This document shows, piece after piece, positions 47,416 through 52,068 of a DNA stretch of 64,000 nt (position 1 is the stretch's first letter; every line of letters starts with the position of its first letter). The notes beneath the pieces were generated by a model. It saw nothing but the letters and a program-made list of their open reading frames with translations, made no database searches and was not told the origin of the DNA. Source of the DNA: Mycolicibacterium chitae (GTDB lineage Bacteria; Actinomycetota; Actinomycetes; Mycobacteriales; Mycobacteriaceae); assembly GCF_900637205.1 (NCBI RefSeq), contig NZ_LR134355.1, forward strand, positions 682,001 to 746,000, written 5' to 3'. The translations under genes were made by a program, and so were the position numbers.

Positions 47416-47745
47416 TCAACCGTGGACTTCCTTTGCGCCGCTTGACTTCTCCAGCTCGCGCCAGCCGGGGACGAGCGCAGTCATCATGGCGGTAAAGGCT
47501 TTGCCATGCGAGCGGTAACGCAGGTGGAGCAGTTCATGAACGACGACGTAATCCTGAAAACTTTCTGGCGTATCTACAAGATCCTGAGCCAGTGTGATGA
47601 CACCGTCTGGCGCGCACGAACCCCACTTCGTAGTCAGCTCAGCGATGACGATGCGCGAAGGATTCACTCGAATCTTTGTTGCCCATGTCATTGCTTTGCG
47701 AGTGAGCACTTGGTTGGCGGTCAGCCTCATCTTTGGCCTCGACAT
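47416..47745 (-). CDS. YgjP/M48-like zinc metallopeptidase
   Basis: 109 aa. Zinc motif VVVHELLHLRYRSHGKAF (HExxH variant, about residues 75-92), preceded by IVIAELTTKWGSCAPDGVITLAQDLV, the WGSC signature of the YgjP/DUF45 family. These proteins often accompany type I restriction genes. ATG overlaps the stop of the hsdR C-terminal fragment (TAATG). Shorter than typical YgjP proteins; a nuclease or protease role is unproven. Confidence 0.8.
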   Translation of the reverse strand: MSRPKMRLTANQVLTRKAMTWATKIRVNPSRIVIAELTTKWGSCAPDGVITLAQDLVDTPESFQDYVVVHELLHLRYRSHGKAFTAMMTALVPGWRELEKSSGAKEVHG

Positions 47746-48464
47746 TAGAGTTTCTCCAGCACGTTCATGATGTTGTCGATGACCTCGGCGCAAATCTTGG
47801 CGGGGACATGGCTATCCAGCAGCGGTTTGTAGAGCCCACTGCGCAGGCGGCGCCGCTCATCCGCATTCTGGCTCCAGTGAGGGAACTGATCCACTGCCAC
47901 CTCGATGCTGACGGCCACACGCTGGATGTCGATACTCCGATTATTCAAGGAACGCTCGGCACTCAGTGCCGAGTAGATGCCGAAGGCACGATCCGAGAGT
48001 CCGCTCTGCTCAGCGAATCTTCGCAGTTTGTCTTTCTCCTCCGCGAGGGCTCTGAGGTCATCGAGTGCGGCGAGGCCCTCGACTTTGCGCTCTTCAAGAC
48101 TCTCGATGACACGATCGGCTCTTTCTTTGATGCTCTGGAGCGCCACCGCGGCTGCCGGATTATCTTCCATCTCTTTGCGTAAGCCACGCAGAAGGTTGTA
48201 GACCTTCTCCTCGGGTGGTCCGTCGTCCTTACCCAGTGCCTCCAATGTTGGGACGTCGAACGTGGCAACTTTGGTGAACCTGCCGAGACCTTCTTGAGTT
48301 GCGGTCTCCTCGATCAGGCGCTTGGTCTTGTGCTCCAGATCGGCAGTGAAAGTGGTCGCCTCGGAGTAGGCATTTCGCACGGCCGCGTATAGAACAGATA
48401 GGCGCTTGTACGTCGCGATGTGGTCGCGCAACTCTGGGCGCTGCAAGCAGCCGCGGCGGATCAT
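47745..48464 (-). pseudogene. hsdR: hsdR C-terminal fragment, inverted relative to the rest
   Basis: About 239 aa: PELRDHIATYKRLSVLYAAVRNAYSEATTFTADL, TKRLIEETATQEGLGRF, EEKVYNLLRGLRKEMEDNP, IKERADRVIESLEERK. This is the helical C-terminal domain of type I restriction endonuclease R subunits. It begins exactly where the plus-strand hsdR (49786-52068) stops matching the family, so one gene has been cut in two with the parts on opposite strands. The ATG at 48464 or 48602 is fortuitous. The YgjP gene follows as in intact operons. Confidence 0.8.
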
Positions 48465-48581: not shown

Positions 48582-49789
48582 GCGCTGAGTGGGAGACGAC
48601 AACGGTCGGCCAGTGCCTAGTACCGGTATCGGTTGCTGGTAGGTCCAAAATCCAGACGAAGGACTACAAGAGTGCAGGCCGGTATCCGATCATCGATCAA
48701 GGACAGCAACGAATTGCGGGATGGACTGACTCACCCGACGCGGTCATCGACAACCCGCTCCCGTTGATCGTTTTTGGCGATCACAGCCGGACCTTCAAGT
48801 ACCTCGATGAGCCCTTCGCACGCGGAGCCGACGGCACCCAATTGCTCCACCCAGTCGACTCTATCGATCCGTTGTTCTTCTTCTACGCATGCCGGGCGAT
48901 CGATCTGCAATCTCGAGGCTACAACCGTCACTTCACCCTCCTCAAGGAGAAGGAGATCGCCTACCCGTCGGATCGGGTAGTTCAGCACAACATCGCAGCG
49001 GTACTGAGTCGAGCCGAGCGTGCGATCGCTGTTCAAGATGAAATTGGCCAACTGTTGGAGAAAGTAAAGTCCGCCTCCATGCACCAGCTGTTCACGCGGG
49101 GACTACGAGGAGAACCCCTGCAGGAGAGTGAAATCGGGCTAATCCCGGAGAGCTGGGAGCTCCGACCCATCCCAGAGCTCAGCGATGTGTGGAGCGGTGG
49201 AACCCCCAAGAGGTCAAATGCGGACTACTGGAACGGAGACATCCCTTGGGTGTCCGGCAAGGACCTGAAACAACCCGCGCTCGACGACGCGACCGACCAT
49301 TTATCACCGCTGGGTGTCGACAACGGTAGCCGTGTTGCACCCGCTGATTCTGTTCTGTTGCTAGTCCGCGGTATGGGCCTTGCGAAGGATCTCCCTGTTG
49401 CTGTCATCAACCGACCGATGGCATTCAACCAGGACGTCAAAGCACTCGTCAGCAAGGCTGGCTATTCAGGGAGCTTCTTGCGTTCAGCAATCTACGCTGG
49501 CAAAGACCGTCTCCTTTCCCAACTCGCGACGTCGGCTCACGGCACCAAGACGCTCAACCTCCATGATCTTGCGAACTTCGTTGTTCCGACGCCGCCGACT
49601 GCCGATGAGGCTGACGAAATTGTTAACGTCCTCGAAACGCTCGACCGGAAGATCGACCTTCATCGCCTCAAGCGCGGCGTCCTAGATCAACTCTTCAAAT
49701 CGTTGTTGCACAAGCTGATGACTGGCGAGGTGTCTGTCGATGATTTCGATCTGAGCGCCCTGTCATCCACCGATGGGAGCCCAGCATGA
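48578..49789 (+). CDS. hsdS: Type I restriction specificity subunit HsdS
   Basis: 403 aa with two target-recognition halves. The first includes YPIIDQGQQRIAGWTDSPDAVIDNPLPLIVFGDHSR. The second starts PESWELRPIPELSDVWSGGTPKRSNADYWNGDIPWVSGKDL. Conserved helices follow each (QDEIGQLLEKVKSASMHQLFTRGLRG and LKRGVLDQLFKSLLHKLMTGEV). HsdS sets DNA specificity for HsdM and HsdR. It appears intact, but no hsdM is present in the window. Confidence 0.93.
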   Translation: MSAEWETTTVGQCLVPVSVAGRSKIQTKDYKSAGRYPIIDQGQQRIAGWTDSPDAVIDNPLPLIVFGDHSRTFKYLDEPFARGADGTQLLHPVDSIDPLFFFYACRAIDLQSRGYNRHFTLLKEKEIAYPSDRVVQHNIAAVLSRAERAIAVQDEIGQLLEKVKSASMHQLFTRGLRGEPLQESEIGLIPESWELRPIPELSDVWSGGTPKRSNADYWNGDIPWVSGKDLKQPALDDATDHLSPLGVDNGSRVAPADSVLLLVRGMGLAKDLPVAVINRPMAFNQDVKALVSKAGYSGSFLRSAIYAGKDRLLSQLATSAHGTKTLNLHDLANFVVPTPPTADEADEIVNVLETLDRKIDLHRLKRGVLDQLFKSLLHKLMTGEVSVDDFDLSALSSTDGSPA

Positions 49790-52068
49790 GCCAGATCAAG
49801 ATTTCTGAGGCCAAGTCGGTGCAGTTCCCAATGGTGAAGCACGCCTCAACTGTCGGCTGGGAGCAACTCACTCCAGAGGAAGCCGAGAGCATGCGTCGTG
49901 GCCGTGCGAACATGCTGTTCCCCGAGGTGCTGGAGAACAAACTGCGGCAGTTCAATCCGTGGCTTACCGAGGATCAGGCCCGAGCAATTATCGAGAGCAT
50001 TGAGGCTCTACCCCCCACGATCGAGGGCAACCGAGAGGTACTGCGTTGGCTCCGGGGCGAACGTCAATGGCACGATGAGAACGAACAGCGCCAGCGCCCG
50101 GTCCAGGTCGTCGACTTCGATCTGCCCCACGAGAACGCGCTGCACGTCACGTGGGAGTGGAAGATCGAGCCGCCGGCCCGGGCAAAGGGGAACCGCGCGG
50201 ACATCATGTTCATCGTCAACGGCATCCCGGTCACTATCGTCGAGCACAAGAACCCGAAGGACCGCGATGCCCTGACCAAAGCGGTGACCCAACTCCGGCG
50301 TTACGAAATTGAGACGCCAGAACTCTTGGCCCAGACTCAGTTGCATAACGAGACCCACCTGATTGACTACTGGTACGGCGTCACATGGAACATCAACCGC
50401 CGCATGCTTTTTAAGTGGAAGCACACAAGGGGCGAGTCCTATCGTGATGCCGTTCAAGCCTTCTTCGAGCCACGCGACTTCCTACGAACTTTGCGCGAGT
50501 GGGTGCTCTTCTATATCGAAGACGGCGAAACAAAGAAATCGGTTCTTCGCGAGCACCAGCGCGGTGCCGTCGACGCAGTGGTCGAGCGTTGCGCCGACGG
50601 CGCGAAGAACCGCGGCCTAATCTGGCACACCCAGGGCTCCGGCAAGACCTTCACCATGCTTACGGCGGCGCAGTTGATCATCAGCCAGAAGGACCGCTTC
50701 AAGAACGCAACCGTGATCCTCGTGGTTGACCGCACCGAGTTGGAGGGCCAGCTAAAGGAGTGGGTCGACAGACTGCTCGGCGAGATGCAGGCCAACGACA
50801 TTCCGGTTCGGCGTGCCAACAGCAAGTATGACCTGCAAGACATCTTCGATTCCGACTTCCGTGGCCTAGTGGTCTCGATGATCCACAAGTTCGAGGCAAT
50901 CAGGAAGGACAGTTCCAACCGCGACAACGTCTTTGTCTTCATCGACGAGGCTCACCGGTCGGTCGCTGCTGATCTCGGCTCTTATCTCATGGCCGCAGTC
51001 CCAAATGCCACCATCATCGGATTTACAGGCACACCAGTCGGTGGGACACAAGGCGGTGGCACAAGTTCATTCCAGATCTTCGGATCACAGGACGAAATGG
51101 GCTACCTGCACAAATATTCGATCGTTGAGTCGATCGAGGACGAAACCACTCTGCCGATCAAGTACATGCTTGCGCCGTCGTCGATGTCCATGGCACCCGA
51201 GGACTTAGACGAGCAGTTCTACGCGCTTGCGTCTGACGAGGCCGTCACCGACATCGATGAACTCAACAAAGTACTGCAGCGAACAGTTGGATTGCGCACC
51301 TTCCTCGGCTCTGACAGTCGTGTAGCGCAGGTGGCTGAGTTCGTCGCGAACCATTTCAGTGAGAACGTAGACCCTCTGGGGCACAAGGCATTTCTTGTAG
51401 CGGTTGACCGCGAGACATGCGCGAAGTACAAGCGCGCACTCGACAAGCTGTTGCCACCCGAGTGGTCCGAAGTGGTCTACAGCAAGAATGCAAGCGATGT
51501 AGTCGACCGTCCTGACGTACATGAACTCCAGCTTTCCGATGACCGCGAGAAAGAGGTGCGTCGGCAGTTCAAGAAGGCCAATCAGCAACCTAAGATCCTT
51601 ATCGTCACTGACAAGTTACTCACCGGCTACGACGCGCCTATCTTGTACGCGATGTATCTCGACAAGCCGATGCGTGACCACGTACTCCTCCAGGCACTCG
51701 CGCGAGTCAACCGACCATATGTCGACAGCGAGGGTGTTCAGAAGAAGGTGGGACTCGTCGTGGACTTCGTCGGCATCTTGAAAGAACTTCATAAGGCGCT
51801 GCGGTTCGATTCCGCCGATGTGGAAGGCGCCCTGCAAGATCTCGATGTGCTGATGGCGGATCTTCTGCTGAAGATCGACGCTGCTTCAACCGAGTACCTG
51901 CTAGTTACACCTGGCCAAGGCGAGGACGAACAATTGGAAGGCATCGTTTACGGCAGATTCGTATCCGAGGACGAGCGCAAAAAGTTCTTCGACGACTACC
52001 GTGACATCGAGGCATTGTGGGAAATTCTTTCGCCATCAGCCGAGGTGCCTATCACGACTGCACCGTAG
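49786..52068 (+). pseudogene. hsdR: hsdR N-terminal and motor part, type I restriction endonuclease, 3'-truncated
   Basis: 760 aa. Nuclease domain with ADIMFIVNGIPVTIVEHKNP (PD-(D/E)xK type), superfamily 2 motor with Walker A TQGSGKTFT (about 282-290), DEAH (about 386-390), GFTGTP, and ILIVTDKLLTGYDAP and QALARVNRPY. It matches R subunits through FFDDYRDIEALWEILSPS, then 9 unrelated residues and a stop. The missing C-terminal helical domain is at 47745-48464 on the other strand. Without it, assembly with HsdM/HsdS should fail. Start overlaps hsdS (ATGA). Confidence 0.88.

What the first reader, a model, noticed from the sequence alone, without database searches (positions are those of the whole stretch)
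47745..52068. hsdR split by an inversion: motor half on plus strand, C-terminal domain on minus strand
The plus-strand HsdR matches the family up to ALWEILSPS and then stops. The missing continuation (PELRDHIATYKRLSVLYAAVRNAY...) begins exactly there at about 48437 on the minus strand, followed by the YgjP gene that normally trails hsdR. The halves are complementary, so a segment holding hsdS and the hsdR 5' part was probably flipped. It could be a dead end, or a reversible ON/OFF switch of restriction. I saw no long inverted repeats at the joints, which favours a one-off event.
Basis: partly seen in the sequence, partly recalled or inferred. Interest (0 to 1): 0.75.

Follow-up and report, generated by a model that had tools for sequence, protein, structure and literature searches.

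The report
Restriction operon broken by flipped segment
In this mycobacterial chromosome the DNA-cutting gene of an antiviral defence operon lies in two complementary halves on opposite strands and most of its partner methylase gene is missing, most likely because a segment was flipped once and neighbouring DNA lost, so this is probably an ordinary dead defence system and not an on/off switch.

Summary
The plus ORF 49786-52068 carries HsdR residues 1-753, the minus ORF residues 753-981 of a 981-residue relative. Of 50 related loci examined, 48 hold both parts, all on one strand, 45 in one open frame. Both flanks keep the ancestral orientation; only 48435-52044 is reversed. The joints show no inverted similarity above chance, and the only recombinase among ten neighbouring ORFs scanned is the element's integrase, 4 kb off. 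A protein crossing the left joint occurs on 5 contigs, one longer than the window's own chromosome. Flipping the segment back could not give a working system, so the ON/OFF reading fails. Best reading: a one-off deletion-inversion that killed a type I R-M operon inside an integrative element; end joining is a plausible, untested cause. No clear sequence decay is visible, so the event is probably recent. Ordinary; low interest.

The parts
42928..43004 (+). tRNA-Phe, likely attachment site of the integrative element that carries the operon
   Evidence: ARAGORN; in relative L087 a 50-bp exact copy of the tRNA-Phe 3' end lies on the far side of the operon
43043..44245 (-). tyrosine integrase of the element
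   Evidence: PF00589, 1.3e-21; relatives at 76-93% protein identity near the same operon in L003, L006, L007 and L050
47416..47793 (-). YgjP-like metallopeptidase gene that normally follows hsdR
   Evidence: PF01863, 6.9e-28; follows hsdR in the relatives
47745..48434 (-). hsdR 3' piece: codons 753-981 plus stop (the open frame runs on to 48602 as antisense of hsdM and hsdS)
   Evidence: Pfam T1RH-like_C at E 0.00028, 20.8 bits, below its cut-off of 26.8
48434..48435 (.). left joint: hsdR codon 753 (minus) abuts an hsdM Trp codon (plus)
48435..48581 (+). last 48 codons plus stop of hsdM
   Evidence: tblastn of the 48-aa piece against 96 loci: L009 66% identity, 1.2e-14, at the end of its 613-aa HsdM; L011 4e-8; 14 loci at E 0.02 or less
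48578..49789 (+). hsdS, full length, 403 aa
   Evidence: PF01420 4.5e-16; PADLOC specificity subunit over residues 1-384; other 403-aa relatives at 84% and 76% over full length
49786..52044 (+). hsdR 5' piece: codons 1-753 (nuclease and motor domains); the frame continues 7 unrelated codons to a stop at 52068
   Evidence: TIGR00348 2.3e-132, PF04313, PF18766, PF22679
52044..52045 (.). right joint: hsdR codon 753 abuts unrelated DNA where hsdM would be expected after a simple inversion
52045..52196 (.). 152 bp without recognised homologue between the right joint and the S8 gene
   Evidence: no listed match within this stretch in 396 genus genomes; no match in 72,556 plasmid records
52197..54758 (-). 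S8 peptidase, IetS-like, next to the right joint where hsdM would be expected
   Evidence: PF00082; PADLOC IetS 4.4e-33
54751..55833 (-). AAA ATPase, IetA-like
   Evidence: PF00004; PADLOC IetA 1.1e-67

Best explanation
The two halves of hsdR lie on opposite strands, most likely because one past rearrangement flipped the segment 48435-52044 (end of hsdM, all of hsdS, first 753 codons of hsdR) and removed the rest of hsdM, which would leave this type I restriction-modification operon dead. Shown by comparison: complementary halves, a reversed segment between unflipped flanks, the hsdM tail inside the segment, no trace of the hsdM catalytic part in the window or (by one HsdM query and one family model) the genome, no inverted similarity above chance at the joints. 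Inferred: one event with three breaks, joined without homology. Mycobacterial Ku-type end joining is the likeliest agent, because both hsdR ends keep the same 3-bp codon (a possible filled-in staggered break) and a Ku gene is present; this step is untested. Predicted: with no HsdM there is no methyltransferase core for HsdR to act with, and HsdR without its C-terminal part would not assemble (recalled from EcoR124I-type enzymes, not tested here). Hence no methylation and no restriction from this locus is expected, in either orientation of the segment.
For: Halves match residues 1-754 and up to 981 of intact relatives and meet at codon 753. In the 396-genome genus sample, 8 genomes besides the window's own hold both stretches, and in all 8 they lie next to each other as in an unsplit hsdR; only G000 matches continuously. 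Of 50 loci examined (48, L088 and L091), 48 hold both parts, 48 of 48 on one strand, 45 of 48 in one frame without a stop over the aligned stretch; 38 of 50 have hsdM upstream on the same strand. L006, L007, L008 and L088 align to the left flank, and L008 and L088 also to about 55900-56244 right of the segment, all in the opposite sense to the hsdS-hsdR piece. The hsdM tail starts at the left joint. No HsdM in the window (4 HsdM queries, best E 0.085); genome-wide one 32% relative and one N6_Mtase. Inverted similarity between the joints (75 bases each side) is reached by 129 of 1000 shuffles. Ku present. The protein crossing the left joint (P0121) and the hsdS (P0192), each a cluster of one member sequence, are on 5 contigs, the longest 5,482,061 bases, longer than the window's own 5,461,769-base chromosome, which speaks against mis-assembly.
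Against: No frameshift or stop in hsdS or either hsdR piece, and dN/dS shows no clear relaxation (N piece 0.04-0.06 against 0.06-0.10 among relatives; C piece 0.09-0.20 against 0.09-0.15, with two of 11 comparisons, L003 0.174 and L004 0.198, above that range), so a recent event or a residual role would both fit. End joining is not shown: the 3-bp sharing could be chance and LigD was not searched. Inversion and hsdM loss could be two separate events. L035, L041 and L045 also lack a close hsdM within 10 kb upstream, so hsdM absence next to hsdR-family genes is not unique, although there the matched hsdR is itself incomplete at its start.
Confidence: 0.88

Rival explanations
1. Reversible inversion switch: the segment flips back and forth and turns restriction on and off.
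For: Inversion switches are known in type I systems (PMC4948785, passages read); an integrase gene lies 4 kb away.
Against: No inverted repeats at the joints above shuffles; the longest exact word shared with the tRNA-Phe/att region within 100 bases of the joints is 8 (left) and 9 (right) bases (no chance level computed); hsdM lacks about 565 codons, so the other orientation would still be inactive.
Confidence: 0.02
2. Two separate systems: a truncated minus-strand hsdR remnant beside an independently acquired, truncated plus-strand hsdS-hsdR.
For: hsdM is missing, as could be if two fragments were brought together; synonymous distances of the two halves differ for some farther relatives (L008 0.915 and 0.634).
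Against: The two truncations would have to meet at the same codon; synonymous distances to the nearest relatives are similar; both flanks keep the ancestral order around the segment.
Confidence: 0.06
3. Assembly error: the flipped segment is a scaffolding mistake.
For: Raw reads are not available here.
Against: Single-contig genome; the joint-crossing protein is on 5 contigs, one of another length; no repeats at the joints to mislead an assembler; hsdM is missing, which a wrong flip does not explain.
Confidence: 0.03
4. The broken operon keeps a role, for example HsdS lending its specificity to the second type I system of the genome.
For: hsdS is full length; a second HsdM-HsdS-HsdR set lies at C1:2188186-2192679 and beyond.
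Against: The second HsdM is only 32% identical to the HsdM family that goes with this HsdS, so interchange is unlikely.
Confidence: 0.04

Closest known systems
Phase-variable type I R-M loci with DNA inversion (pneumococcal Spn556II/cod; Mycoplasma pulmonis hsd)
   Same: DNA inversion within a type I R-M locus
   Different: In the pneumococcal locus repeats of 15, 298 and 85 bp flank the flips, hsdS genes are exchanged and the tyrosine recombinase PsrA catalyses one of the inversions (PMC4948785, passages read). Here no repeats above chance, one hsdS, breaks inside hsdM and hsdR, and hsdM lost.
Naturally broken type I R-M operons (pseudogenised hsdR or hsdM)
   Same: The R subunit gene is interrupted and the system probably dead; three of the 48 relatives with both parts (L037, L043, L088) have hsdR parts in different frames
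   Different: Interrupted by inversion plus deletion, with both halves kept open, instead of a frameshift
Intact hsdM-hsdS-hsdR-ygjP operon beside the same integrase (L006 Mycobacterium sp. UM_WGJ, L007 Mycobacterium asiaticum)
   Same: Related integrase (90-93% protein identity), FtsK-like gene, operon family and YgjP gene; same place relative to the integrase and the tRNA stretch
   Different: hsdM, hsdS and hsdR run in one direction and hsdM is present upstream; no S8/AAA pair in the fetched DNA of those loci

Membership tests
Type I R-M operon (TIGR00348/HSDR_N family), functional | full-length HsdR in one frame | tested here: not met
   split between 52044 and 48434 on opposite strands
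Type I R-M operon (TIGR00348/HSDR_N family), functional | HsdM with an N6 methylase domain | tested here: not met
   only the last 48 codons remain; none in the window, only a 32% relative elsewhere
Type I R-M operon (TIGR00348/HSDR_N family), functional | HsdS specificity subunit | tested here: met
   403 aa, PF01420 and PADLOC Specificity_I
Type I R-M operon (TIGR00348/HSDR_N family), functional | methylation or restriction activity | not testable with these tools
   needs methylome or plating data
Phase-variable inverting type I R-M locus | inverted repeats at both ends of the flipped segment | tested here: not met
   best inverted local score reached by 129 of 1000 shuffles; none of the 25 inverted pairs of the repeat finder links the two joints
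Phase-variable inverting type I R-M locus | dedicated recombinase in the locus | tested here: inconclusive
   among 10 ORFs scanned between 43046 and 55833 the only recombinase is the element integrase at 43043-44245; smaller ORFs were not scanned
Phase-variable inverting type I R-M locus | both orientations present in a population | not testable with these tools
   no reads available; the joint-crossing protein is one member sequence on 5 contigs
Ku/LigD end-joining product | little or no homology or a short duplication at the joints, and Ku in the genome | tested here: inconclusive
   3-bp GAG retained at both hsdR ends, could be chance; Ku present; LigD not searched

The most novel reading that the evidence does not exclude
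The wreck is still used: after the flip, the undamaged hsdS and the motor half of HsdR are expressed as a new plus-strand pair that works with the second type I system of the same genome or acts on its own as a DNA translocase, explaining why neither gene shows decay.
Probability: 0.03. Interest if true: 0.6.

Novelty: new member of a known kind. Interest (0 to 1): 0.2.

Why it matters
It corrects an attractive misreading: a split hsdR next to its own other half looks like a phase switch, but reading across the joint into the neighbouring gene shows that hsdM is cut and its catalytic part gone. It is also a clean case of a repeat-free deletion-inversion in a mycobacterial defence element, with both joints placed to the base on the hsdR side. 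Methylome or transformation work in this species should not count this locus as a working barrier unless activity is shown.

Tried and rejected
Switch by inverted repeats: rejected. Switch by the element integrase: no word longer than 8-9 bases shared between the tRNA-Phe/att region and the joints. hsdM moved elsewhere: not found with one HsdM query and one family model. IS-driven flip: the transposase-like ORFs (56295-57578; family recalled, not scanned) lie more than 4 kb from the right joint. Plasmid source: 125 of 72,556 plasmid records match window 47400-55380, none with a place covering 80% of it; the 20 records listed match the S8/AAA part only. Phage source: in 50,697 records one 51-bp match. 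Solved structures: an intact relative (P0001) matches five distinct EcoR124-type HsdR sequences, but the C piece alone finds none (best E 0.13, unrelated). The hsdR-C query was cut out of frame, so its identities are not used; redone in frame. Seven paper searches listed no title or abstract start that reports this locus; seen were 12 of 12, 15 of 29, 8 of 36, 0 of 0, 8 of 15, 8 of 51 and 12 of 35 papers. Beyond listings I saw passages of PMC4948785 and the abstracts of PMC3519483 and PMC5198162. Protein hits are 90% clusters and 120 of 7908 hits are listed, so the absence of an intact copy in sister strains is not shown. No structure was predicted.
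Full report
What is there. The plus ORF 49786-52068 is an HsdR with the nuclease and motor domains (TIGR00348, 2.3e-132; HSDR_N, SWI2_SNF2, T1R_D3-like). The minus ORF 47745-48602 has a weak T1RH-like_C match (20.8 bits, below the cut-off of 26.8); of its 71 protein hits many are named as type I R subunit or HsdR, and the only other name given is one 'hypothetical protein'. Compared separately with 10 intact relatives, the plus product covers residues 1-754 and the minus product runs from 736 or 738 to their last residue (979-981). 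Position by position against 13 relatives the plus homology runs to GAG at 52042-52044 and the minus homology starts with GAG at 48434-48432, so both halves keep codon 753. The 7-bp overlaps of the BLAST alignments in most relatives come from three further matching bases on the plus side after a mismatch, which may be chance.

What normal looks like. In the window's genus (396 genomes sampled), 73 genomes have some match, mostly short. Eight genomes other than the window's own have both hsdR stretches (G191, G013, G045, G236, G249, G073, G209, and the more distant G289), lying next to each other as in one gene; only the window's own genome matches continuously. Of 50 loci examined (48 plus L088 and L091) both parts are found in 48 (L041 and L042 lack the C part), always on one strand; in 45 they are in one frame without a stop; in L037, L043 and L088 the frame differs. 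hsdM is found upstream on the same strand in 38 of 50. Of the other 12, most are short of upstream DNA, but L035, L041 and L045 have 10 kb upstream and no close hsdM.

Plus-strand 48435-48581, just before hsdS, encodes 48 residues that match the C-terminal end of HsdM, from a Trp codon at the joint to the stop: L009 66% identity, E 1.2e-14, at the end of its 613-residue HsdM; L011 4e-8. Of 96 loci searched 14 hit at E 0.02 or less; two of these (L062, L092) repeat the place of L008, and the other 12 lie at or across the end of the hsdM match. So the left break is inside hsdM. A plain inversion would leave the rest of hsdM to the right of 52044. It is not there: HsdM of four relatives finds nothing in the window (best E 0.085). 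In the whole genome the HsdM of L008 finds one relative, 32% identical, and the N6_Mtase family one member, at C1:2188186-2189661, with an HsdS in a 412-codon frame and an HsdR in a 1079-codon frame close by: a second, apparently complete type I system. About 565 codons of the local hsdM, judged by the length in L009, are therefore lost.

Orientation. In L006, L007, L008 and L088 the integrase side of the element and the YgjP/hsdR-C stretch align in one sense and the hsdS-hsdR stretch in the other; L008 and L088 also align to about 55900-56244, right of the segment, in the sense of the left flank. Only 48435-52044 is reversed. Where hsdM would be expected there are 152 bp without recognised homologue and an S8 peptidase plus AAA ATPase similar to IetS/IetA (well below the NCBIfam cut-offs). 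That pair also occurs in G094 and G002 (77% and 72% DNA identity over about 3.5 kb), where no other part of the query matched.

Mechanism. The joints show no inverted similarity beyond chance (129 of 1000 shuffles) and no word longer than 8-9 bases shared with the tRNA-Phe/att region. The pneumococcal inverting locus carries repeats of 15, 298 and 85 bp and uses a tyrosine recombinase for one of the flips (PMC4948785, passages read); the abstract of PMC5198162 explains absence of domain movement in a Streptococcus suis system by absence of repeats. A repeat-free flip with an adjoining deletion fits broken ends rejoined without homology. Mycobacteria have Ku/LigD end joining (start of the abstract of PMC8068969 in the listing), and Ku is encoded here. 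The 3-bp GAG kept on both hsdR sides would fit a staggered, filled-in break, but three bases can match by chance. I hold the deletion-inversion as supported by comparison, the end-joining step as plausible only.

Function. No HsdM of this family remains to form the methyltransferase core; HsdR is cut before its C-terminal part. No activity is expected in this or the opposite orientation (prediction). Sequence decay is not clear: no stop or frameshift in hsdS or the pieces; dN/dS of the plus piece is 0.04-0.06 against 0.06-0.10 among relatives, of the C piece 0.09-0.20 against 0.09-0.15, the comparisons with L003 and L004 (0.174, 0.198) being above that range. These ratios cover mostly the time before the split, so they fit a recent event and do not prove use.

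Not an artefact. The genome is one contig. A 239-aa protein whose first residues cross the left joint is one member sequence on 5 contigs, the longest 5,482,061 bases against 5,461,769 for the window's own; the hsdS is likewise on 5 contigs with the same longest length. The strains behind these contigs are not named, and whether the window's own is among the 5 is not shown.

Verdict. Observation confirmed, inversion supported, switch not supported. It is an ordinary if instructive wreck of a type I R-M operon on an integrative element that itself seems stranded.

Noticed in passing
G000:C1:2188186-2192679 and beyond (outside the window; L095): A second, apparently complete type I R-M system: HsdM, HsdS and HsdR in open frames of 557, 412 and 1079 codons.
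   Followed up: partly
window 52197-55833: S8 peptidase plus AAA ATPase pair similar to IetS/IetA, with relatives in two other genomes of the genus sample and in Rhodococcus and Nocardia records of the plasmid collection.
   Followed up: partly
window 43004 to about 58700: No second close copy of the tRNA-Phe gene end was found in the window or the genome, whereas relative L087 has a 50-bp exact copy on the far side of the operon: the right attachment site of the element seems lost or much changed.
   Followed up: partly
window 57455-58608: ORF with a TNT (toxin) domain, 4.2e-24, followed at once by a 162-aa ORF without Pfam match, by position a possible immunity partner (partner role is a guess).
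   Followed up: no
L088 about 12200, L037, L043: hsdR parts in different frames, as in natural frameshift pseudogenes or sequencing errors.
   Followed up: no
window 55898-56244: Stretch about 73% identical to DNA on the far side of hsdM in L008 and L088, ending near transposase-like ORFs at 56295-57578.
   Followed up: no
L035, L041, L045: hsdR relatives whose match starts at residue 40-300 and that have no close hsdM within 10 kb upstream: perhaps further broken operons.
   Followed up: no
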